Assembly: GCA_944390685.1 (NCBI GenBank)
Contig: CALXQL010000005.1
Location: forward strand, 1-64,000
DNA length: 64,000 bases
From: an uncultured Alphaproteobacteria bacterium
GTDB lineage: Bacteria > Pseudomonadota > Alphaproteobacteria > Rs-D84 > CACZYB01
Reading direction: 5' to 3'
Shown: in pieces, positions 1 to 48,671 of the stretch
How positions within the stretch are numbered: the stretch's first letter is position 1
Layout: each line of letters starts with the position of its first letter
Notes under the pieces: model-generated
Database searches by the model: none
What the model saw: only the letters and a program-made list of their open reading frames with translations
What the model was told of the DNA's origin: nothing
Made by a program: the position numbers and the translations under genes

Positions 1-921
1 ACCACATCTCAATTATCAAATGCCATGGTTAAATATTGTGTCCCAGCATCAGCGGGAACTTGCACGGATAGGGCAACTTATAGAAGTATCACAAATACCT
101 GCGTATGCGGTTTGGGTAAATATTATAATGAAAGAAAATGTAATAAATGTGGAATTGGAACCTATGCGGATAAAGATGATTTAACATCGTGTAAAATATG
201 CCCAGCTGGAACCTGTGCCACAAGCGAGGAAAGTCAAAGTTGTAAAAGTTGTGGTTTTGGTGCAGCGACATGTGATGCAAAAACGTGCCAAATTAAAAGT
301 TGCCAATCTGGATTTACATTACAAAATGGAAAATGTAAATTTTATAAAGAATATAGAAGTCCGGGAAATTATACAATACATTTGCCAGCCGGAACATATA
401 AAGTTACGGTGGCAGGTGCCGGTGGTGGTAGAGGTGGTAATTGGGGATGCTGTTCATTGGGACATCATATGACAGGTTTATTTGTGTGTGGAATTATAGT
501 AGGAAAATGTGAACATGCAGGAGGAAAAGGTGGGGCAGGTGGAAGAGGTGAAGGTATTACAAAAACATTAACATTAAATGAAGGTAATTATAATATAACG
601 GTTGGAAGAGCAGGTAGTGCTGGTTCAGATCATAGTGGTGCAAAAAATTGGAATGGGCAGGTAGTTGGATGTGCATTATATAATTATTTTTGTACTACTA
701 TAGAAGGAAAAAGGCCTAGAGGATCAGGTGGTGGTGTATCAAAATTTTATAATATAACTGCACGTGGTGGTAGTGGTGGTGCTGGTGGTGAGTGTAACTA
801 TTTAAATAGTGGTGGTTGGGCTCAATGTTCCCATGCTGGAAGAAACGGCTCTACTGGTACTAGTTATTCGGGTGGGGCTCCTGGTGGTTCCCATGGCTGG
901 GTGATTATAGAATCTGTATAA
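1..921 (+). CDS. Cys-rich/Gly-rich surface protein, 5' end missing
   Basis: The frame is open from the first base of the window, so the gene starts upstream. The visible 306 codons have two parts. The first third is a cysteine-rich repeat region with CxxC pairs spaced like TNFR/EGF-like or ephrin-receptor-like modules (GKYYNERKCNKCGIGTY, then TSCKICPAGT). The rest is a glycine-rich domain that opens with a strand-like YKVTVAGAGGG and ends GSHGWVIIESV, reminiscent of polyglycine-sandwich domains of phage tail fibres and of the ALK/LTK glycine-rich domain. This suggests an extracellular adhesin or surface protein. Any signal peptide lies outside the window. A hairpin terminator follows. The function is inferred from composition only. 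Confidence 0.7.
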   Translation, partial: TTSQLSNAMVKYCVPASAGTCTDRATYRSITNTCVCGLGKYYNERKCNKCGIGTYADKDDLTSCKICPAGTCATSEESQSCKSCGFGAATCDAKTCQIKSCQSGFTLQNGKCKFYKEYRSPGNYTIHLPAGTYKVTVAGAGGGRGGNWGCCSLGHHMTGLFVCGIIVGKCEHAGGKGGAGGRGEGITKTLTLNEGNYNITVGRAGSAGSDHSGAKNWNGQVVGCALYNYFCTTIEGKRPRGSGGGVSKFYNITARGGSGGAGGECNYLNSGGWAQCSHAGRNGSTGTSYSGGAPGGSHGWVIIESV

Positions 922-4192: not shown

Positions 4193-5407
4193 CTACCATG
4201 AAAGTTCTATAATAGATCCCTCTTGAACAACTCTACCATCTGGAAGGGAACATCTTCCAAAGACTTCTGGACCTACATCTTTTGCACTAACAGTTGATGT
4301 GATAATTTGTCCCACACCTGATGTGATAAGTCCACTACCAGCTTGCCATCCTTCGGAAATACCTTCAAATACTTTTTTGCCTGTTCCTGCTTGTTCTGTT
4401 TTTAAAATTTCATTACCATCTTCGGTATAATTACCTGTGCTTACTTGTTCTGTTGCATTCATACCAGCTAATACACCACTAGTAACACCCACACCAACAC
4501 CTAAAACAGTGCTACCAATACCAGTATATAAAGCAATTTCATTTCCGGTTTGTTCAGGATTATCGGAATAACAAGCACCTAAACCAAAAGCATCATGAGA
4601 ACAAGTTATTCTAGTAGTTTTCACAGCAGTAATAGACCAAGTTTTATTTATATTATCATTGCATCCAACTAAATCATTTTTAAGAACTTTTGCATTTGAT
4701 ACATATTTTCGTGAAAAATTGATGGAAATATCACAAGATTGTTTATCTCTATTATATTTACCACTATAAATGTTGCGACAGGCTTCTTCTTGTTCATTTA
4801 TTAAGTAAACATCGGTAAAATATTTTGAAAATAAATCATATTTTGCCACATCTTTAATCATGACTTTACATGATTGAAAGGCATTATCAAAATTAATAGA
4901 TTTATAACATTGAACATTTGTAGGTTGTTCAGCGCTACCCATACATTGTTGTTGCATACAAAATTTAAATTCTTGCCAATCGGGATCCGCTGGCACAGCA
5001 TTTATTTTTTGCTCTTCTGAAACAAACACTTCTGGAGCAACGACAGTATTTTGAGTTGTAGTAGTAGTTGTATTTGTAGTATTTGTAGTAGTAGTTGTTG
5101 TTTGAGTAGTGCTGGTAGATTGATTTTGTGTTGCAGGCATTGTTTGAGTTGTTTGAACTGGTTGCACGGCTAATTGAGATGATGTATCCACTTGCACAGC
5201 ATTACCTATGGAAGATTCCATATTTTCCATACCTATAATTGATTTTGCGACACTAGGGGCTTGAGCTCTTTTCACTCTTCTTGTTGTTGTTTTTGATACC
5301 TTTCTAGAGGAGGAGGATGCAGGCTTTCTAGTTGCAGAAAACACCGAGCATATATTAAAAAAATATATACTTAAAAAGGATATACAAACAACTTTTTTAT
5401 TAAACAA
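4193..5407 (-). CDS. Secreted Cys-rich protein, tandem family member 4
   Basis: 404 aa, no recognised domain. A TTG start is chosen because AAAGGA sits 7 nt upstream and the product then opens with a signal peptide (VVCISFLSIYFFNICSVFSA). A basic Ser/Thr/Lys/Arg stretch and a Thr/Gln/Asn-rich linker (about residues 85-125) follow. The Cys-rich core begins FKFCMQQQCMGS and includes CRNIYSGKYNRDKQSCDISI. Next comes a Gly/Val hydrophobic segment (GSTVLGVGVGVTSGVLAGM), and the C-terminus is GRCSLPDGRVVQEGSIIELSW-like. The same order occurs in the three genes upstream, so this is a paralogue in one operon. Probably periplasmic or surface-exposed; function unknown. Confidence 0.75.
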   Translation of the reverse strand: MFNKKVVCISFLSIYFFNICSVFSATRKPASSSSRKVSKTTTRRVKRAQAPSVAKSIIGMENMESSIGNAVQVDTSSQLAVQPVQTTQTMPATQNQSTSTTQTTTTTTNTTNTTTTTTQNTVVAPEVFVSEEQKINAVPADPDWQEFKFCMQQQCMGSAEQPTNVQCYKSINFDNAFQSCKVMIKDVAKYDLFSKYFTDVYLINEQEEACRNIYSGKYNRDKQSCDISINFSRKYVSNAKVLKNDLVGCNDNINKTWSITAVKTTRITCSHDAFGLGACYSDNPEQTGNEIALYTGIGSTVLGVGVGVTSGVLAGMNATEQVSTGNYTEDGNEILKTEQAGTGKKVFEGISEGWQAGSGLITSGVGQIITSTVSAKDVGPEVFGRCSLPDGRVVQEGSIIELSW

Positions 5408-5479
5408 GAATAAATCCTTTCAATTATAAAAATAATTATACTATAAAAATAATAAAAAATAAATAGAAAATATAAAAAA

Positions 5480-7054
5480 TTATAATTGCCATTGAAGTAA
5501 AATTATTTCATTTTCTGTTCCAACCCATTCGCCATTTATGAAACAATTACCTCTATTAAGATTAGTTTGATTTACCTTTCCAACGCCTTGTTCTCTATTT
5601 TGAAAAGTTGCAAAATCTTTAACCCCGCTTTTTTCTTTCTCAACAATGATGTCATCAATCACACCTTGTATAGCTATATCTGTTATATTACTTACGACAT
5701 TAAGGGAAGAACTTGCAATAGATAAAGCCTGACCAGCTTTTTCAAATTTGGCATTTGTATCTTTTGTTAAATCTATTGGATTTGCTTTACTTCCAGATAT
5801 CCCAGAAGAATTATTAGCGCTTCCACCATTGATAAGTTTTCCGGCTATACTTAAAGCAGGCATCAATAAATAAGAAGCACTTTTTGAAACTAACATATTT
5901 GTTAAGTCTTCTTTTGACATTTTCCCTTGTATTGCGCGGGATATATCAATGCCAATATAAGCAATATCTGTTATAGTATTGATAGAAGCTTCTGCAATAT
6001 CCGCAATAGGAGATGTTCCCAGCACAGTTGCAGTTATATTTCCAGCTGTTCTTAAAGAATTTGCAGTCAATGTTAAAGCTTGATATTTTTTCTTTTTTAA
6101 ATACTCAAATGAATATCCAAGATTTGTATCAAATTCCTCTTGATTACAATAAAAGAATTCGCCAACAGGAATATTTTTTGATGCGGAAATATTATCTTTA
6201 TTCATACCATATGATACATTTATATAACAAGATTTTCTATCGCTTGATAATTGACCATTCATATGTTTACAAGCTTCTTCCCTTTTCAAAGCCATTTCAT
6301 TTAAGAAATATTCTCTTGTGGAAAGAGGAGCCGGTGATTTTGCAATTATTGAAGAACATTTTGAATCAATTACCATATTAGCAGAATCTTCATCAAAACA
6401 AAGACCAAATTCTGGCATATTAAAGTTTTCTGCCCCGAAATCATTATATGCAGTGCAATAATCTCTCGCACAATTTTTTAATTCTTTTATATTTGAAGAT
6501 AAAGTTGAATCTTTTTCCACTTCTTGTTTAGAAACTAAAAGGCAATCTCTTTGTACAAGAGTTTTATATTTTTCTGTAATAGCTCTTCTATTTTCCATAC
6601 ATTGATCTAAAATATAAAGACATTGTTTTTTTGAATATTCAAAAAGATCAAACCCCTTTTTTATCTTATTTCCATTAAAATCCAAAAAATCAACAGAAGA
6701 ACCGGAATTTGTATATTTATCTTCATAACAAACACATTTACCAATTTGATTATTTGCACAAAATTTATTCATACATAGGTTGTAATAAAATTCACAATTA
6801 TCTTCATTTATTATAGGTGTAGATGTATTTGTAGTTTGATTTGTAGTGTTTTGATTATTTGTGGATGAAGATATGGATGAGGAGTTATTCGCAATTCTTA
6901 TATTATTACGAGTATTATTTCTTACAGATAAAGATTTTGAAGAAGCCTTTCGTTCAGTTTTTTTAATAGCAGCCATTGTCATTTCAGGATATAAAGAAAT
7001 GAAATAAATCAATGTAATAAAAGAATATTTTTTAAATGTCATATATTTCATCAT
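5480..7054 (-). CDS. Secreted Cys-rich protein, tandem family member 3
   Basis: 524 aa, the longest of four paralogues. It has an N-terminal hydrophobic signal (FITLIYFISLYPEMTMAA), a basic and Asn/Ser/Thr-rich linker, then a Cys core starting NCEFYYNLCMNKFCANN and GKCVCYED, with later CFDEDSANM and CKHMNGQLSSDRKSCYIN blocks. A long Ala/Ser/Ile-rich region (roughly residues 325-470) follows, and the C-terminus GNCFINGEWVGTENE ends in LLQWQL. The start overlaps the end of the upstream paralogue by 23 nt, implying translational coupling. An alternative ATG lies four codons in. No enzyme motif is visible. Confidence 0.75.
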   Translation of the reverse strand: MMKYMTFKKYSFITLIYFISLYPEMTMAAIKKTERKASSKSLSVRNNTRNNIRIANNSSSISSSTNNQNTTNQTTNTSTPIINEDNCEFYYNLCMNKFCANNQIGKCVCYEDKYTNSGSSVDFLDFNGNKIKKGFDLFEYSKKQCLYILDQCMENRRAITEKYKTLVQRDCLLVSKQEVEKDSTLSSNIKELKNCARDYCTAYNDFGAENFNMPEFGLCFDEDSANMVIDSKCSSIIAKSPAPLSTREYFLNEMALKREEACKHMNGQLSSDRKSCYINVSYGMNKDNISASKNIPVGEFFYCNQEEFDTNLGYSFEYLKKKKYQALTLTANSLRTAGNITATVLGTSPIADIAEASINTITDIAYIGIDISRAIQGKMSKEDLTNMLVSKSASYLLMPALSIAGKLINGGSANNSSGISGSKANPIDLTKDTNAKFEKAGQALSIASSSLNVVSNITDIAIQGVIDDIIVEKEKSGVKDFATFQNREQGVGKVNQTNLNRGNCFINGEWVGTENEIILLQWQL

Positions 7055-8306
7055 CCCAATTTTCCGCCCATCTTAATTTATATGCAATAGTATCGTCCTC
7101 TGGAAAAAGTTCATGAGGAATTCCATCTTTTATAACAAAACATTTTCCAGTATAAGAATAATCTTTTGTCGCAAGATTATATACATCACCGACACTATTT
7201 ACCATAGTATTCAAACCTTCCAATACACCCATGGCAATAGCCTGCTTACCTTCTGCCCCCATAATTACTTTACCAGTTCCTTTTATGTATTGTATAGGAA
7301 CTTTATTGCCATTACTATCAATTCTAAAATCTGTTTCTGATTCAACTTTTTCCCCAACTTCTTTTTTACTACCTACAGCAGCAGACGCAACGGATAATCC
7401 TGTTTGTAACAAAGATATTCCATTTAAAGTTAAATTTTTAATTGAAACTAATTTTTCATCAATCTTTTCACCCATAGAAGTATTAAAAAAAGCCGAACTA
7501 CAAATAAGTTTATCCCCAATTTTGAATTCTTTTTTAGCTTTTATATCTTTACCGGCAACTCCTATACCAATTAAAAGATAGCAATTGCCATCATCTTTAA
7601 AAGTGCCAAACATTTTATTACAATAATTCTTTTTATACGAAAGGAAAGATTTGTTTATTAAGTTTTTAAGTTCATCTATATTATTGCAATCGCTATAAGA
7701 ATTTTTACAAGCTTCAAACCTGACATTGAAATTATCTTCATCAAAACAACCAACGAAATCATCTTTTTTATTTCCTAAACATTTTGGTTGAAGACAGGCT
7801 AGGGTGTTAGCCACATAATTATTTATATTTTTTGTTTGTGTTTGTTCAGCATTTAAAGCTAAGGAATAATCCAAACAATCGTTTGATGCATTTCGCTTAA
7901 AAGTTTCAATAATATTTTTACTCAAAGACGGACATGCATCTATTATATATTTACAATTGTCATTTGCATTATTAAATTTTGTAATATCCTTACAAGCGCA
8001 TCTACCATTTGATGAATTATAACAAGTTTGATTCATACATTTATTATATAAATCTTCACAATTATATTTTGTAATTGTAGCTACATCAATTTTTTGTTCT
8101 TCATCAATTTTATTTTGAGAAGATTGATTTATCACCTGTGATGATGAAGCGGTTCTAACATTTTTATTTGATACCCTAATAGAGGTTTTTGCATTTGCTT
8201 TTCTTGTTCTGGTTTGGGCAAAGGAAGTTAAAGGAATATTTAAACTTAATAAAAGTATAAAAAAGTTCCAATAATTTTTATTATGTAAATTTAATAAGTT
8301 AAACAT
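7032..8306 (-). CDS. Secreted Cys-rich protein, tandem family member 2
   Basis: 424 aa. A signal peptide (FFILLLSLNIPLTSFAQ) is followed by a basic RTRKANAKTSIRV segment, a Ser/Asn/Gln linker and the family core: NCEDLYNKCMNQTCYNSSNG and RCACKD, then LACLQPKCLG, CFDEDNFNV and YCNKMFGTFKDDGNCYLL. The hydrophobic Ala/Gly/Ser stretch (LLQTGLSVASAAVGSKK) precedes a C-terminal GKCFVIKDGIPHELFPED. The paired Cys pattern suggests disulfide-bonded periplasmic or surface material. Function unknown. Confidence 0.75.
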   Translation of the reverse strand: MFNLLNLHNKNYWNFFILLLSLNIPLTSFAQTRTRKANAKTSIRVSNKNVRTASSSQVINQSSQNKIDEEQKIDVATITKYNCEDLYNKCMNQTCYNSSNGRCACKDITKFNNANDNCKYIIDACPSLSKNIIETFKRNASNDCLDYSLALNAEQTQTKNINNYVANTLACLQPKCLGNKKDDFVGCFDEDNFNVRFEACKNSYSDCNNIDELKNLINKSFLSYKKNYCNKMFGTFKDDGNCYLLIGIGVAGKDIKAKKEFKIGDKLICSSAFFNTSMGEKIDEKLVSIKNLTLNGISLLQTGLSVASAAVGSKKEVGEKVESETDFRIDSNGNKVPIQYIKGTGKVIMGAEGKQAIAMGVLEGLNTMVNSVGDVYNLATKDYSYTGKCFVIKDGIPHELFPEDDTIAYKLRWAENWDDEIYDI

Positions 8307-8328
8307 ATAACCTTAATCCCTTTATTTA

Positions 8329-9453
8329 TTATTGCATAAAGTTTATTTTAAAATATTGTCCCATAGGAGCCACATATTTATTATTTATATAACATGCACC
8401 TTTTTTTGTTCCATTATCAATTTTAATGTATCCATCCAAAGAGTCCGCAGTTCCGCTGGTCATCAATTTTATACCGCTACCTATAAGTGATGTATTTCCC
8501 CCAAGAACAGCACCAACAATAGTTGTTACAACACCTCCAACAGCTTTTGTGATACCAGATATCATTTGAACAATACCTTTTGCTTTATTTTCATTTTCTT
8601 CATAAAAAGTTGCAAAATATTCTTGTGTGCATTCCACCACTTCACCTACATTAAACATTTTTGATGTTAACTCTTTTTCCATTGCGCCATTAGGGTCAAT
8701 ATATTCAACTCCGTCTTCCCAAGAAGTTTTTGGTACACCGAAAACAACTTTTACTTTACAAATTTTATCATCGTAATCAATAGTTCCATTCATACTTTGG
8801 CAATATGAAATATTAAGTTTTTCCATTTCTTCATAAAAAGCTTTTTTCACAGCCAATTTTCTATTTGTTTTTTCCAAAACATTTTCACATTTGCTAGCTC
8901 TTCTTTCAATATTTGAAATTGTTAAACAATCTTTAAAATTTGTTCCGCATAATGGTTGCATACATTGTATATATGATTGTAAAGCCTCTTGTGAAGCCTT
9001 TTCACCATTATATGCCATAGCGTCCATATAATTTTTTGTTAAAAGATCTGTTTGGATTTGAGCTTTATACCTATTTTCAATTGTATTTTGATCTTTTAAT
9101 TCACATGATTTTAATACACTAAGGCAAGTTCCTTTTGCATAGGTGTAAAGATCATTTCCAAGTCTTATATTATTACCATCTTTTTGAATTGTCTCAAAAG
9201 TATCAAGAGTTTGTGAACAATTAAATCTTATACCTTGATTATTTAAACATACACCATCCATACAATTAAAGAATTTTTCTTCACAAGATAATTCTATTTT
9301 TTGATTATTTTCATTTACTTGATTTTGAATTGGTTTTACAGATATTCTATTGGAATTTTTTGCTCTTATAGTTTTTGAAACATTTCTTGCACAAACTACA
9401 TTTGAAAAATTTGTCAATAAAATTAAAAGTAAAATCCAGTTTTTTTTGTCCAT
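8329..9453 (-). CDS. Secreted Cys-rich protein, tandem family member 1
   Basis: 374 aa from the ATG at 9453, chosen because GGAGAG lies just upstream; an in-frame ATG at 9465 is weaker. The signal peptide is WILLLILLTNFSNVVCA. The Cys core begins SCEEKFFNCMDGVCLNNQG and includes CMQPLCGTNFKDC and YCQSMNGTIDYDDKICKVKV. A Gly/Val/Ile-rich hydrophobic stretch (GITKAVGGVVTTIVGAVLGG) could insert in a membrane. The C-terminus GACYINNKYVAPMGQYF matches the endings of its paralogues. It is the first of the four genes after the prepilin peptidase (57-nt gap). Function unknown. Confidence 0.75.
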   Translation of the reverse strand: MDKKNWILLLILLTNFSNVVCARNVSKTIRAKNSNRISVKPIQNQVNENNQKIELSCEEKFFNCMDGVCLNNQGIRFNCSQTLDTFETIQKDGNNIRLGNDLYTYAKGTCLSVLKSCELKDQNTIENRYKAQIQTDLLTKNYMDAMAYNGEKASQEALQSYIQCMQPLCGTNFKDCLTISNIERRASKCENVLEKTNRKLAVKKAFYEEMEKLNISYCQSMNGTIDYDDKICKVKVVFGVPKTSWEDGVEYIDPNGAMEKELTSKMFNVGEVVECTQEYFATFYEENENKAKGIVQMISGITKAVGGVVTTIVGAVLGGNTSLIGSGIKLMTSGTADSLDGYIKIDNGTKKGACYINNKYVAPMGQYFKINFMQ

Positions 9454-9510: not shown

Positions 9511-10266
9511 TTAAGAGTAAAAGAATGAACTAAAAAACCATATAAAAAATGCAATTACAATAAATGGGGCAAGTGGTGCAAAATTGATTTTTTTACTCTT
9601 GCAATATATAAACATTAAAGGGAATGAAATCACTAAAATTTTACCTAAATTTTCAAATCCAGTAAATGAAGCAATAGATACTAATAATTTCACATCTCCA
9701 CCGCCAAAACTATAAGGGCTTTTAAAGTAAAACATTAACGATATAGTGAAACATAATATATAAGCGGATATACTACTGATAATACTATTAAAAGGTGTAA
9801 TAATTAAAGTGTTTCTTATATTGTATTTTTCGCAGTAAATTGATATTAAAATGCCTATTAAAAGCATAGGTAAAGTTAAAATATCGGGAATAATCCTATA
9901 TCTATTATCTATATTTGCGGAAAATAATAGTAAAAACATAAAGATATGTAATAATATTAAAGGATAACTTTCATTTATATGATTCTTTATCAAATAAGTT
10001 AAAGTAATACTTAAACAAGTGTAAATTATTCCCCAAATACATTTATTATAAAAATATTGTTTTTTCAAATAGTTATATTTGTTATTTTTAAGTAATTTAT
10101 TATAGGGCATTTTATGTTTTTTATTATTAAAGTAATACTTTAATATATCACCTATATAACTATGCAAAGAGCAAGGGTAAAACTTCATTAAAAATCTGCT
10201 TAAAACAGGTATTAAAAAACCTATTGCAAAATATATAAAAACATTTAAAATTTGATTCGATAACAT
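9511..10266 (-). CDS. Type IV prepilin peptidase (A24 family)
   Basis: Inner-membrane aspartyl protease that cleaves type IV pilin-like signal peptides. From the ATG at 10266 (AAGGA upstream) it is 251 aa, with about six hydrophobic segments and both aspartate motifs: D120 in DNRYRIIPDILTLP and D191 in FGGGDVKLL, the GxGD signature. The longer frame would run into divergent gcrA and adds no family sequence. The part before the catalytic core lacks the usual CxxC zinc pairs of the methylase domain. It heads the minus-strand run of four Cys-rich secreted genes. A pilin-like substrate candidate lies at 21895-22392. Confidence 0.85.
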   Translation of the reverse strand: MLSNQILNVFIYFAIGFLIPVLSRFLMKFYPCSLHSYIGDILKYYFNNKKHKMPYNKLLKNNKYNYLKKQYFYNKCIWGIIYTCLSITLTYLIKNHINESYPLILLHIFMFLLLFSANIDNRYRIIPDILTLPMLLIGILISIYCEKYNIRNTLIITPFNSIISSISAYILCFTISLMFYFKSPYSFGGGDVKLLVSIASFTGFENLGKILVISFPLMFIYCKSKKINFAPLAPFIVIAFFIWFFSSFFYS

Positions 10267-10896: not shown

Positions 10897-13623
10897 ATGG
10901 AGAGAGCCAATACCTTTTGGCAAATAAACGGGAAATATGAAGATGTGAAAGAATTTCACTATTCTTCTAATAATATGTCCTTTGTCGCCTATTTTAAAAA
11001 CGAACAATTAATTTTTGTAATTGATGATACATGCGATGTTATATCACCAAATGAATTATTGATTATAGAACCATTAAAAGATGAAACAAATCTTAAAAAT
11101 CCAGAAACAAAATGGGATTCCATCTTAAAAAATAAATATTCTATAAATCCAATGGAAATAAGACCAAAGGAAAATACTAAGTATAAAAAATTAGATATAA
11201 GTTATACCTCACTTGATTTATATGCATCATTCATTTCATCATTGAATGAGGAAACATTGGATTTAATTGAACAAAATAGAGAAGTTTTATCTCTTGAAAA
11301 TGCTTATGAAAGAGAGGCGGAAAATCTTCTTATTTATAATAAATCAGGATCTACTTTAGAAAAAGCCCAATTGACATTGGAAAAATTGAAAAAACGAATT
11401 TTGAATATTTCAAAAAAAATGAAAAAGCAAGAAGAGGAAGAAGCAAAAAATCCTGATAATGTTAATTCTGAATTAAAAAATGAATTAATGGAAAAATTAT
11501 ATCTTGCCACAGAAAAATTAAAAAGAACAGAACGCCGTATAAAAAGAGCAAATAAACGTTTTGATTCGGCTCAATCTCAATTAACTGCAAACAGACAACA
11601 AATCGCTGAAATAAAAAGAAGGTTAGAGGAACGAAAGCAAAAAAATGAACAAATCGTATCATCTCAACCTATTGAAAAACCTTCGTATTCTGCGATACAA
11701 ACTGATATGAATCCAACGATAAATGACAAAAACAAAATTGAATTCATCCCTCCTCAAATTGAAAAGTTGACATTTGAAAATAATAATGCTACGAATCGAA
11801 GAGAAGAGGTAAAGGAACAAACTTTTTTAACAAAGGAGAGTACTACTATGGCAAAAGAAACAGATAACAAAACAATCCAACCAACACAAGAATTTAAACC
11901 ACCTTTTGTTGATGATACTGCATCAAAAAAACAAGATGGCGATATAAGATTCGCAAAAAAATCAATTGTTTTAGATGATAAGTATAAAAGAATATGGATG
12001 TATTCTCTTTCTATATTGGTTTCTCTTATTGTAGTATTTGGACTTTTCTATTTTGTAAGTGGGGATAGTTCAACTGATGAATATACAGTTAATTATATTG
12101 AACAAAATTATGAACCTATTGTTGAAGAGCCTATGCCAATAGTAGAAGAACCTATGCCTTCTCCTGAAACTTATCCTATGCCAGAAGAAACTGCTCCTGT
12201 TATGAATGATACAAATGCTCAACAAGAAATGTATCAACCAGAGGAAGTTGTTTCTCAACCTATGCCAGTGAAAGAGGAACATGTTGCTCCTGTTAAAAAA
12301 ATAGAACCTGCAAAAAAGCAATCTAAACCAGTTGCAAAAAAACAAACTTCTACAACAAAGGTTGCTCCTAAAAAAGTTGAACCAAAAGAAGAAGAGGTTG
12401 TAGTTGAAGAAGAACCTATCATTGAAGAAGAACCTATCATTGAAGAAGAACCTGTTATGGAAGAAGAACCTGTTATGGAAGAAGTTTATACAGAAGAAAT
12501 CGTTGAAACAGAACCATTAGAAGAAATAGTAATTGATGATAATTACTATATGGATGAAGATATGGATTCAAACGATACCTATGTAGAAGATTATACAATT
12601 GAAGATATAGATATTGCCGATACAGATTTACTTTCCCAAGCAAGAAATGCTTACATGGAAAATGTTATAAATAATGATATTTACTTAGGGGTAATAAAGG
12701 ATTTAAAAATCAATTACTTTGATGATGAAAATCAAAATAATGTAAGTATATTACTTGAAAAATTGAATGAATTAAATCAATACTGGAATACATTTAGAAA
12801 TTATACTTATGATGCATATTATGAAGATGATTATACATTGCGTCCAGATATCAATTATGAAGAATATGCAAATGATGAATATTTACTAAGACTTTATACA
12901 AATGCATATTATGAAATGTATGAATATTTGGTAAATGAATTTACTATGACATACGAATATGCTAATAATACAGCAACAGATTTGTATGATTTAATGGAAG
13001 AAGAAATGCAAGTTTTGGGTCGCCCAAATAAAAAATTGGCTATCTTAGTTGCTTTATATCAAGCAATTCAAGAACAAGGAGGTGCAGAAGCAGTTTTAAA
13101 TGCAATTGCAATGCGTGATGATGAACTTTATTCATGTGGCCCTGAAATAGATGCTACTTTAATGCCAACTCAAACAATAACAGAAGTATCAGTAGAAGAA
13201 AATATTGAATATGATGATGGATCTTCATTATATAGAAGTGAAACAACAACAATAACTGAACAAACCTATCCTCAAGAAGATGATTTATTGGTTGAAAATG
13301 ATGCTTCCTATGAAGATATAGAGTTATATGCAGATGAAACAACAGAAAATATTGTTCCAGAAGAGTTAGTTGCAACTCCACAACCAACAGAAGAAGTAAT
13401 AAATACAACTCCATATAATGATGAAAAAGTTGTATATGAAGAAGAATATATTGAATATGACGAAAATGGTATGCCAATAGATAGCGAATATGTAGAATAC
13501 GATGAAACTACTGATGAATATGCTGATGACAATGGTAATTATTATAACACAGATGATTATTATGAAGAAGATGGTATGGAATATTCTAATAACGAAGAAG
13601 TTTATTATGAAGAAACAATATAA
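10897..13623 (+). CDS. Large acidic single-pass membrane protein of unknown function
   Basis: 908 aa, no recognised family. Residues 1-365 look cytoplasmic: a small N-terminal domain (FWQINGKYEDVKEFHY), then a predicted coiled coil around 155-255 rich in Glu, Lys and Arg (EKLKRTERRIKRANKRFDS). One transmembrane segment spans about 367-388 (MYSLSILVSLIVVFGLFYFV). The remaining 520 residues are strongly acidic, with Pro/Glu repeats (EEEPII/EEEPVM), Lys/Pro stretches and a Tyr/Asp/Glu-rich tail; by charge rule they face the periplasm. AAAGGAGAG precedes the start. A second strong Shine-Dalgarno with in-frame ATG at 11848 (residue 318) could give a shorter product. It follows gcrA by 23 nt. Confidence 0.75.
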   Translation: MERANTFWQINGKYEDVKEFHYSSNNMSFVAYFKNEQLIFVIDDTCDVISPNELLIIEPLKDETNLKNPETKWDSILKNKYSINPMEIRPKENTKYKKLDISYTSLDLYASFISSLNEETLDLIEQNREVLSLENAYEREAENLLIYNKSGSTLEKAQLTLEKLKKRILNISKKMKKQEEEEAKNPDNVNSELKNELMEKLYLATEKLKRTERRIKRANKRFDSAQSQLTANRQQIAEIKRRLEERKQKNEQIVSSQPIEKPSYSAIQTDMNPTINDKNKIEFIPPQIEKLTFENNNATNRREEVKEQTFLTKESTTMAKETDNKTIQPTQEFKPPFVDDTASKKQDGDIRFAKKSIVLDDKYKRIWMYSLSILVSLIVVFGLFYFVSGDSSTDEYTVNYIEQNYEPIVEEPMPIVEEPMPSPETYPMPEETAPVMNDTNAQQEMYQPEEVVSQPMPVKEEHVAPVKKIEPAKKQSKPVAKKQTSTTKVAPKKVEPKEEEVVVEEEPIIEEEPIIEEEPVMEEEPVMEEVYTEEIVETEPLEEIVIDDNYYMDEDMDSNDTYVEDYTIEDIDIADTDLLSQARNAYMENVINNDIYLGVIKDLKINYFDDENQNNVSILLEKLNELNQYWNTFRNYTYDAYYEDDYTLRPDINYEEYANDEYLLRLYTNAYYEMYEYLVNEFTMTYEYANNTATDLYDLMEEEMQVLGRPNKKLAILVALYQAIQEQGGAEAVLNAIAMRDDELYSCGPEIDATLMPTQTITEVSVEENIEYDDGSSLYRSETTTITEQTYPQEDDLLVENDASYEDIELYADETTENIVPEELVATPQPTEEVINTTPYNDEKVVYEEEYIEYDENGMPIDSEYVEYDETTDEYADDNGNYYNTDDYYEEDGMEYSNNEEVYYEETI
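11834..11850 (+). promoter_or_regulatory. Possible internal ribosome binding site and in-frame ATG
   Basis: AGGAGAG (11834-11840) lies 7-9 nt before an in-frame ATG at 11848 inside the 908-codon gene. Starting here would yield a 591-residue protein containing the membrane segment and acidic region but not the coiled coil. Confidence 0.35.
12406..12477 (+). repeat. Four tandem 18-nt units
   Basis: Two copies of an 18-mer encoding EEEPII followed by two copies encoding EEEPVM (units begin at 12406, 12424, 12442 and 12460). The first pair and second pair are nearly identical internally, indicating recent unit duplication. Confidence 0.85.
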
Positions 13624-21894: not shown

Positions 21895-22392
21895 CTAATT
21901 TGCCATATTGGAACGTTTTAAGAAGAATGTTACTCTATTTGTTTCACCAGGTTTATTACATTCGGTAATACAATCATGAGGAACAGTACCATTTGTTCCT
22001 GTAGGATTTGGTGTATTATAGTATCCTTCACAATCACTTTGGAATTCACCCATACAGAAATAAATACAATCTTCTTTTGATAATTTTGATAAGGATACAT
22101 CAATACAACCACCAACATAAAAACTAACTGTTCCAATAGGTGTTTTTGTATTTACATTATTTTGTTGTAATTTTTGTTTTACTTCATTTGTATCGCCAGA
22201 TTTTCTTCCAAAATAAATAGCATTGATTTTATCGCGAATATTTTTAATTGTATCAATGGTTTCAATTCTTCTTATTTTATGTGAATAATCAGCATACATT
22301 TTAAAACTTGTTCCGGATATTGCCCCAATCAATGCAATATAAAGAAGCACTTCTAACATTGAACGACCTAAATCAGATTTTTTAAATTTCAT
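21895..22392 (-). CDS. Type IV pilin-like protein
   Basis: 165 aa with a class III signal: a short basic leader KFKKSDLG, then RSMLEVLLYIALIGAISGTS. Cleavage after the Gly would put Glu at position 5 of the mature protein, as in type IV pilins and pseudopilins. The hydrophobic helix continues into a globular domain with Cys residues in its C-terminal half (GGCIDVSLSKLSKEDCIYFC, later DCITECNKPGE). Expected to be processed by a prepilin peptidase such as the one at 9511-10266. No assembly ATPase or platform gene is adjacent, so it may be a minor or orphan pilin. Confidence 0.75.
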   Translation of the reverse strand: MKFKKSDLGRSMLEVLLYIALIGAISGTSFKMYADYSHKIRRIETIDTIKNIRDKINAIYFGRKSGDTNEVKQKLQQNNVNTKTPIGTVSFYVGGCIDVSLSKLSKEDCIYFCMGEFQSDCEGYYNTPNPTGTNGTVPHDCITECNKPGETNRVTFFLKRSNMAN

Positions 22393-47075: not shown

Positions 47076-48671
47076 ATGCCATTTCCAAATATATCACCTA
47101 TTGCATTTGAAATATTCGGGTTAGAAGTTCGTTGGTATGCATTGGCATATATATTTGGTTTTATGATATCGGTATCCCTTATAAAGCATTTTTTACGAAC
47201 ATCTACAAATAACACTATATCATATAAGAATTTAGATGACTTATTAACCTATATGATTTTTGGAGTTATTTTGGGTGGTCGTTTAGGTTATGTAATTTTT
47301 TATAATTTAAGATATTATTTATCAAATCCATTGGAAATAATCCAACTTTGGCATGGGGGCATGTCCTTTCATGGGGGATTATTGGGAAGCATAATAGCCA
47401 CATATTTATGGAGTAAAAAGTATAAACAAAACTTTTTATACATTACGGATTTATTAAGTATTTGTGCACCAATTGGACTATTTTTTGGACGTATATCAAA
47501 CTTCATTAACGGAGAATTATACGGCCGTATAACCACCTCTTCCCTTGGAATAATATTTCCTAACACAAATGGATTGCCACGCTACCCAAGTCAACTTTTT
47601 GAAGCATTAAGCGAAGGTTTAATTTTATTTATAATATTATTTGGGTTAAGACATATAAAGACAATAAGGAATAAATACGGAATTTTATCTTTTACATTTC
47701 TTGGTGGATATGCTATTGCCCGTATTTCAATGGAAAATTTCCGCGAACCTGATGAGCAAATAGGATTCCTATTCAATTCATCATTAACAATGGGGCAACT
47801 TTTAACTATTCCAATGTTAATTATTTCTATCATAGCCATAATAAAAATATCAAAACAAAATAAAAAAGAAGATTTATTCATCACTTCCCCTCTTTTGAAT
47901 AATAATACTAAAATAATAAATAGGTTTTTTACTCGTAATGGAGGTGTTTCAAATGGCGTTTTTCAATCATCAAATTGTAAATACGAAACAAGTGATGATA
48001 AAGATAAAGTAAGAAAAAATCGTGAAATTTTGTTATCAAGTATTTCACTTGATGCTAATAAAAGTCTATTTACATTAAATCAAAACCATACAAACGAAGT
48101 TATAATAATTGATGATCCAAACGATACCCCTAATAAATATTTGGATATAAAAGCGGATGGACTCATTACAACTATACCTAATATAGCAATAGGAATCCTA
48201 ACGGCTGATTGTATTCCAGTATTGTTAATGGATGAAGAAAAAAAGGTTATAGGGGCAATTCATTGTGGTTGGCAAGGTATCCATAAAAACATAATCAAAA
48301 CTACAATTGATAAACTAAAATCATTGAATTGTGATATTAAAAATATAAAGGTTGCACTTGGTCCATGCCTTAAAAAACAATCATACGAAGTTGATATTGA
48401 TTTTATGGAGAATATTGTAAGAGAAAAAGAAACTTATAAAAATGTATTTAAAAAACTATCTAAAAAGAATAAATACCTTTTTGATTGCACAAAATATTGT
48501 GTTATGAAATTAAAGGAAGAAGGAATTAACTATATTGATATTTTAAATTTTGATACCTATAAACAAGATGATTTATTTTTTAGTTATAGACGAAGTGTAA
48601 TTACAAAAGATTTTGCAACCTCTCCAACTGATGAAGGAAGATTGTTATCAATAATAAGTATTAAGGATTAA
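47076..48671 (+). CDS. lgt-pgeF: Fusion of prolipoprotein diacylglyceryl transferase (Lgt) and PgeF/YfiH
   Basis: One 531-codon frame holds two normally separate proteins. Residues 1-265 are Lgt, an inner-membrane enzyme that lipidates prolipoproteins: WYALAYIFGFMISVSLIKHF, LWHGGMSFHGGLLGS around 91-105, FFGRISNFINGELYGRI, RYPSQLFEALSEG and MENFREPDEQIGF. Residues 280-531 are a PgeF-type (DUF152/YfiH) enzyme that corrects wrongly built muropeptides or acts as a purine nucleoside hydrolase-like protein: RFFTRNGGVSNGVFQSSN, H338 in NQNHTN, C379 in TADCIPVLL, H396 in IHCGWQG. All three PgeF metal residues are present. AAGGAG precedes the ATG. The stop is 3 nt from the convergent lptC stop. Confidence 0.9.
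   Translation: MPFPNISPIAFEIFGLEVRWYALAYIFGFMISVSLIKHFLRTSTNNTISYKNLDDLLTYMIFGVILGGRLGYVIFYNLRYYLSNPLEIIQLWHGGMSFHGGLLGSIIATYLWSKKYKQNFLYITDLLSICAPIGLFFGRISNFINGELYGRITTSSLGIIFPNTNGLPRYPSQLFEALSEGLILFIILFGLRHIKTIRNKYGILSFTFLGGYAIARISMENFREPDEQIGFLFNSSLTMGQLLTIPMLIISIIAIIKISKQNKKEDLFITSPLLNNNTKIINRFFTRNGGVSNGVFQSSNCKYETSDDKDKVRKNREILLSSISLDANKSLFTLNQNHTNEVIIIDDPNDTPNKYLDIKADGLITTIPNIAIGILTADCIPVLLMDEEKKVIGAIHCGWQGIHKNIIKTTIDKLKSLNCDIKNIKVALGPCLKKQSYEVDIDFMENIVREKETYKNVFKKLSKKNKYLFDCTKYCVMKLKEEGINYIDILNFDTYKQDDLFFSYRRSVITKDFATSPTDEGRLLSIISIKD

What the first reader, a model, noticed from the sequence alone, without database searches (positions are those of the whole stretch)
4193..9453. Four tandem paralogous secreted Cys-rich proteins with no known family
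Four successive minus-strand genes share one order of parts: signal peptide, basic Ser/Thr/Asn linker, a core starting (N/S)CE..(Y/F)..CM...C, a block ending in D.K.C...V or similar, a Gly/Ala/Val hydrophobic stretch, and a C-terminus G.C.(I/V)..(G)... ending near an aromatic residue. Lengths vary from 374 to 524 aa. Gene pairs overlap or abut. This is a locally expanded family, probably disulfide-bonded and envelope-associated. I recognise no family. The operon-like arrangement suggests joint function, for example a multi-subunit surface structure.
Basis: partly seen in the sequence, partly recalled or inferred. Interest (0 to 1): 0.8.

Follow-up and report, generated by a model that had tools for sequence, protein, structure and literature searches.

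The report
Order-wide secreted cysteine-module pilus-operon proteins
Four neighbouring genes of a tiny-genome gut alphaproteobacterium encode related, disulfide-rich secreted proteins of no known family; they share an operon-like run with the cell's only type IV pilin-processing enzyme and carry a cysteine module found in nearly every genome searched of their bacterial order and in none sampled outside it.

Summary
Four tandem minus-strand genes (A 374, B 424, C 524, D 404 aa) encode secreted Cys-rich paralogs. A, B and C share 14 aligned cysteines. D is related but lacks the first Cys module. Pfam, NCBIfam, PHROGs and PDB sequence searches give no family, and a confident AlphaFold model of the C core (pLDDT 83) has no PDB fold match.

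(1) The gene directly upstream on the same strand is a prepilin peptidase, the only copy found in this genome; the order peptidase-A-B-C(-D) is kept in the genus and in a second genus of the family, and related clusters follow it in a second family. (2) A type IVb pilus core operon (TcpQ/PilL-N-O-P-Q-R) lies elsewhere in the genome; its ATPase was found in 24 of 25 order members searched. (3) A module, C-x6-CM-x3-C...C, recurs in larger secreted proteins across the order: a profile of A matches 191 of 201 genomes of the order and 0 of about 381 other genomes of the class.

Best reading: disulfide-stabilised extracytoplasmic proteins of a type IVb pilus, possibly pilus-secreted like TcpF. The pilus link is positional; function is untested.

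The parts
9511..10266 (-). Prepilin peptidase (Peptidase_A24, 251 aa), first gene of the run; has the 'NIDNRYRIIPD' and 'GGGDVK' active-site motifs
   Evidence: Pfam PF01478 E=3.3e-13; only A24 match in this genome, and one match in each of 105 of 114 order genomes; start codon read from sequence
8329..9453 (-). Cys protein A (374 aa): signal peptide, basic tail, 14 mature Cys, beta region, glycine-zipper-like hydrophobic stretch, C-terminal G-A-C-Y motif
   Evidence: matches in 8 of 10 other family genomes searched
7032..8306 (-). Cys protein B (424 aa, 17 Cys)
5480..7054 (-). Cys protein C (524 aa, 16 Cys), longest hydrophobic stretch, ends ...GNCFINGEWV...LLQWQL
   Evidence: core model pLDDT 82.8, pTM 0.61
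4193..5407 (-). Cys protein D (404 aa), divergent paralog without the first module
9217..9285 (-). Module 1 of A (Cys57-Cys79, C-x6-CM-x3-C-x9-C)
8887..8964 (-). Module 2 of A (Cys164-Cys189, CM..LCG..F..C), shared with D and with the large proteins of the order
21895..22392 (-). Type IV prepilin-like protein (165 aa, DLG^RSMLEV cleavage motif), one of at least three in the genome; expected substrate of the peptidase

Best explanation
A-D are Sec-exported, disulfide-stabilised proteins made together with the genome's only prepilin peptidase, and most likely work outside the inner membrane with the cell's type IVb pilus. Proposed sequence of steps: (1) the peptidase cuts and matures the pilins encoded elsewhere in the genome (inferred from its family and motifs). 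(2) A-D pass the Sec translocon, lose their signal peptide and form up to 5-8 disulfides each in the periplasm (inferred from signal peptide and conserved Cys). (3) The folded Cys core, with its flexible basic N-terminal tail and its Gly/Ala hydrophobic C-terminal region, assembles with or is carried by the pilus and reaches the surface or medium, where it contacts partner cells or gut material (inferred). Shown here: paralogy, secretion signals, conserved Cys, gene order, presence of the pilus machinery, order restriction. Not shown: localisation, disulfide bonding, binding to any pilus part, activity.
For: Order peptidase-A-B-C-D on one strand in G000-G003 and G005; A-B-C-D in G004, whose contig ends inside A; peptidase-A-B-C in G008 (other genus). 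In a second family, G011 has peptidase-A-B-C-D-large Cys protein-prepilin on one strand and G016 has the peptidase followed by two related Cys proteins. One peptidase match per genome, so this locus serves all its pilins. Core type IVb operon TcpQ/PilN/PilO/PilP/PilQ/PilR in this genome: PF10671 E=2.7e-17, PF06864 6.2e-19, PF00437 2e-66, TIGR02520 8.8e-71, and in the other families of the order sampled; ATPase in 24 of 25 genomes. Pilins in all 9 genomes searched. A-D evolve faster than neighbours (39-59% identity to G001 against 68-90% for peptidase, GcrA, HisS, PrfA), as surface or secreted proteins often do.
Against: The pilus link is positional. The neighbouring gcrA and the 10897-13623 gene also stay next to the peptidase in most families, so synteny is generally conserved here. 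In the large family f5 the peptidase is followed by three secreted proteins with no detectable similarity to A-D, so A-D are not needed for every pilus of the order. The core pilus operon itself contains no Cys-family gene. G007 has the pilus ATPase but neither peptidase nor A-D, possibly an assembly gap. Co-transcription was not measured.
Confidence: 0.5

Rival explanations
1. A-D are soluble proteins secreted through the type IVb pilus itself, as TcpF is in Vibrio cholerae: the flexible tail behind the signal peptide docks on a minor pilin and the pilus pushes the folded protein through the secretin.
For: Same layout as TcpF, whose flexible N terminus is the secretion signal bound by minor pilin TcpB (PMC9565799): signal peptide, flexible tail, folded core. 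Proteins with the Cys module share a basic S/T/A/N/R/K-rich tail: mean net charge +3.8 in the first 40 mature residues, 71% at +3 or more, against -1.0 and 23% for other predicted Sec proteins in the same loci.
Against: No sequence or fold match to TcpF/CofJ or any PDB entry. The tails share composition, not a motif. The signal-peptide test was a crude pattern on a redundant set. The C-terminal hydrophobic stretch suits a membrane or complex better than a soluble product. Tails can equally be cell-wall or LPS spacers.
Confidence: 0.2
2. A-D form a disulfide-stabilised surface coat or matrix independent of the pilus; the peptidase neighbour is a historical accident of conserved gene order.
For: Order-wide expansion into larger multi-module proteins at many loci away from pilus genes; local gene order is conserved in general; basic tails could hold the proteins to the envelope.
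Against: Same-strand peptidase-Cys cluster persists in two families while the sequences have diverged to about 20-30% identity; G011 ends the run with a prepilin.
Confidence: 0.2
3. A-D are periplasmic or outer-membrane accessory factors for pilus assembly (a pilotin, alignment or plug complex) that never leave the cell.
For: Operon-like run with the peptidase; Gly/Ala hydrophobic segments closed between two conserved Cys (275 and 354 in A); near-terminal aromatic residue in B, C and D.
Against: No resemblance to known pilus accessory families; fast divergence and wide length variation; absent from the peptidase locus of f5, which keeps the same core pilus operon.
Confidence: 0.1

Closest known systems
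TcpF / CofJ, proteins secreted by type IVb pili (PMC9565799)
   Same: Signal peptide, flexible N-terminal tail, folded secreted core; encoded with type IVb pilus functions
   Different: No sequence or fold similarity found; here 3-5 tandem Cys-rich paralogs with a hydrophobic Gly/Ala region and an order-specific Cys module; secretion route untested
R64/TCP-type type IVb pilus systems (TcpQ, PilN, PilO, PilQ, PilR, prepilin peptidase)
   Same: The genome has these core genes and A-D sit beside the prepilin peptidase
   Different: Core operon, peptidase and pilins lie at separate loci; A-D have no counterpart matched by Pfam or NCBIfam pilus models
Eukaryotic twin-Cys helical hairpin proteins (CHCH, CX9C), recalled from memory
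   Same: Cys pairs spaced along predicted helices that could staple hairpins
   Different: Spacing is C-x6-C-x4-C, bacterial and secreted; no profile or fold match; resemblance only

Membership tests
Type IVb pilus-secreted protein (TcpF/CofJ-like) | Sec signal peptide followed by a flexible N-terminal tail and a folded core | tested here: met
   Sequence; tail unconfident in the model (pLDDT about 30 for residues 1-50); charge statistics
Type IVb pilus-secreted protein (TcpF/CofJ-like) | Sequence or fold homology to TcpF/CofJ | tested here: not met
   No PDB sequence match up to E=1 and no PDB fold match
Type IVb pilus-secreted protein (TcpF/CofJ-like) | Tail binds the cognate minor pilin; secretion depends on the pilus | not testable with these tools
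   Needs binding or secretion assays
Type IVb pilus system (in this genome) | PilN-type secretin, PilO, assembly ATPase, PilR platform protein, prepilin peptidase, pilins | tested here: met
Any curated family in Pfam, NCBIfam or PHROGs | Profile match above the curated cut-off | tested here: not met
   (only sub-threshold chance matches)
Type IV pilin or minor pilin | Type III signal (G^xxxxE plus hydrophobic helix) | tested here: not met
   A-D have Sec-type signals without the G-x4-E motif
Order-specific Cys-module superfamily (defined here) | C-x6-C-M-x3-C module and/or the second CM...C(G)..F..C module in a secreted protein | tested here: met
   46 CMx3C motifs in 62 Cys-rich proteins of f5 and 0 in shuffles; core profiles without the tail hit 30 of 62 at 1e-3 and 0 shuffled

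The most novel reading that the evidence does not exclude
The order (probably Rs-D84) uses its widespread type IVb pilus as a secretion system for a large, order-specific family of Cys-module proteins that share a basic N-terminal targeting tail, and A-D are the substrates encoded beside the peptidase. These proteins would be the contact or acquisition apparatus of reduced-genome bacteria reported to lack uptake transporters and suspected to depend on partner cells.
Probability: 0.15. Interest if true: 0.85.

Novelty: new variant of a known kind. Interest (0 to 1): 0.6.

Why it matters
PMC12306168 describes Rs-D84 as having genomes mostly below 1 Mb, no standard sugar, amino-acid or peptide transporters, and a possible partner-dependent life; its text reports type IV pili for another lineage, not for Rs-D84. 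Finding a type IVb pilus across the order, plus an unannotated secreted Cys-module family in 191 of 201 genomes, gives a concrete candidate for how these cells contact partners. The fold also appears absent from the PDB.

Tried and rejected
Mobile or phage origin: no match to A in 50,697 phage records or to C in 72,556 plasmid records. A-D as pilins: no type III signal. Homology between A-D and the three secreted proteins downstream of the peptidase in f5: none (hhalign probability at most 2%). Low-complexity tail as the cause of the family hits: rejected, cores without tails still hit and shuffles do not. Known fold: the full-length A model (pLDDT 61.6) and the C core model (82.8) gave no PDB match below E=0.5, and A gave none in viral models below E=0.4. 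(an E. coli stub) was a test without use.

Full report
OBSERVATION. The region 4193-9453 holds four successive minus-strand ORFs that I call A (8329-9453, 374 aa), B (7032-8306, 424), C (5480-7054, 524) and D (4193-5407, 404). The gaps are 22 bp (A-B), a 23 bp overlap (B-C) and 72 bp (C-D). Each protein starts with a Sec-type signal followed by a basic Ser/Thr/Lys/Asn tail, then a Cys core, a Gly/Ala/Val stretch and a 'G.C(F/Y).(N/K)...' end. A multiple alignment of A, B and C with orthologs has 14 Cys columns kept in 21-24 of 21-24 rows; the mature part of A contains exactly those 14 Cys. Profile comparison on cores without the tail gives 99% probabilities among A, B and C and 93-97% for D against each, with scores 58-217 against at most 28 for column shuffles. 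D lacks module 1; its 'CMQQQC' corresponds to module 2 of A-C.

NO KNOWN FAMILY. Pfam, NCBIfam and PHROGs gave nothing above cut-off. A profile of 24 sequences matched no PDB chain up to E=1. Foldseek found no PDB match below E=0.5 for either.

NEIGHBOURHOOD. Directly upstream on the same strand (9511-10266) is a prepilin peptidase with both aspartate motifs, the only A24 match in this 0.93 Mb genome; 105 of 114 genomes of the order have one match each. The five-gene order is present in four other genomes of the genus (G001-G003, G005); in G004 the contig ends inside A after D, C and B. In another genus (G008) it is peptidase-A-B-C. In a second family, G011 carries peptidase-A-B-C-D-856 aa Cys protein-prepilin on one strand and G016 carries the peptidase with two related Cys proteins. 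In the largest family (f5) the peptidase is followed by three unrelated secreted proteins in the loci examined.

PILUS. Contig C3 of the genome holds TcpQ/PilL, PilN, PilO, PilP, PilQ and PilR in order. The ATPase was found in 24 of 25 order genomes tested, and prepilin-like genes in all nine tested, including 21895-22392 in this window. So the order has a type IVb pilus whose peptidase is supplied by the A-D locus in this family.

ORDER-WIDE FAMILY. A profile of A matched 191 of 201 genomes of the order. In a sample of 385 genomes of the class, the only matches were the four order members G000, G014, G017 and G019, and a profile of C agreed. Outside family f1 most hits are 700-1100 aa secreted Cys-rich proteins that share module 1 ('CRQKYMGCMDSFCMLDNDSGGRCIC' against 'CEFYYNLCMNKFCANNQIGKCVC' in C) and repeat module 2 ('CTVEFKNCMITTGGCGDDFAGC'). 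In 62 such proteins, C-x6-CM-x3-C occurs 46 times and never in 20 rounds of shuffling; core profiles without tails hit 30 of 62 and no shuffled copy at 1e-3. Module-bearing proteins have unusually basic tails after the signal peptide (crude predictor, redundant set).

MECHANISM. The evidence supports secretion signals and a conserved Cys framework directly; disulfides, pilus association and function are inferred. Gene order with the sole peptidase, the prepilin at the end of the G011 run and faster divergence than neighbours (39-59% identity to G001 against 68-90% for flanking genes) favour an extracytoplasmic role with the pilus. TcpF of Vibrio cholerae shows that type IVb pili can export proteins by a flexible N-terminal tail (PMC9565799); A-D have that layout but no homology. 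The main caution is that gcrA and the 10897-13623 gene also keep their place, so adjacency alone is weak.

CONTEXT. The close relative G002 corresponds to contig JAAVBO010000023 (MAG Mgla_MAG_30-bin_7). The order is probably GTDB Rs-D84, described as reduced-genome gut bacteria without standard uptake transporters and with a suspected partner-dependent life (PMC12306168).

VERDICT. A real, unannotated, order-restricted secreted Cys-module family, with the A-D subfamily in an operon-like run with the prepilin peptidase.

Noticed in passing
window 47076-48671 (+): One ORF fuses prolipoprotein diacylglyceryl transferase (LGT, residues 8-256) with a multi-copper polyphenol oxidoreductase/laccase-type domain (Cu-oxidase_4, residues 285-508); both halves match Pfam strongly.
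   Followed up: partly
window 1-921 (+): C-terminal part of a secreted-looking Cys-rich protein with TNFR/EGF-like repeats and a glycine-rich end, cut by the contig start; a glycine-rich end (Gly_rich_2) also closes a long signal-plus-basic-tail Cys protein in relative G001 (L030).
   Followed up: partly
window 10897-13623 (+): 908 aa protein without Pfam match, acidic C-terminal half and one apparent transmembrane segment, kept beside gcrA and near the prepilin peptidase in most families of the order sampled.
   Followed up: partly
L149:8439-12185, L146, L147, L153: In family f5 the prepilin peptidase is followed by three secreted proteins of no known family, unrelated to A-D, on the same strand.
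   Followed up: partly
G011: 19 prepilin-like matches in a 1.0 Mb genome, some in ORFs of more than 500 aa; far more than the 1-6 in the other eight genomes searched.
   Followed up: no
L030:1-7450: Three tandem 683-876 aa secreted proteins with K/S/T-rich tails and 14-24 Cys in G001, a second cluster of the same general layout.
   Followed up: partly
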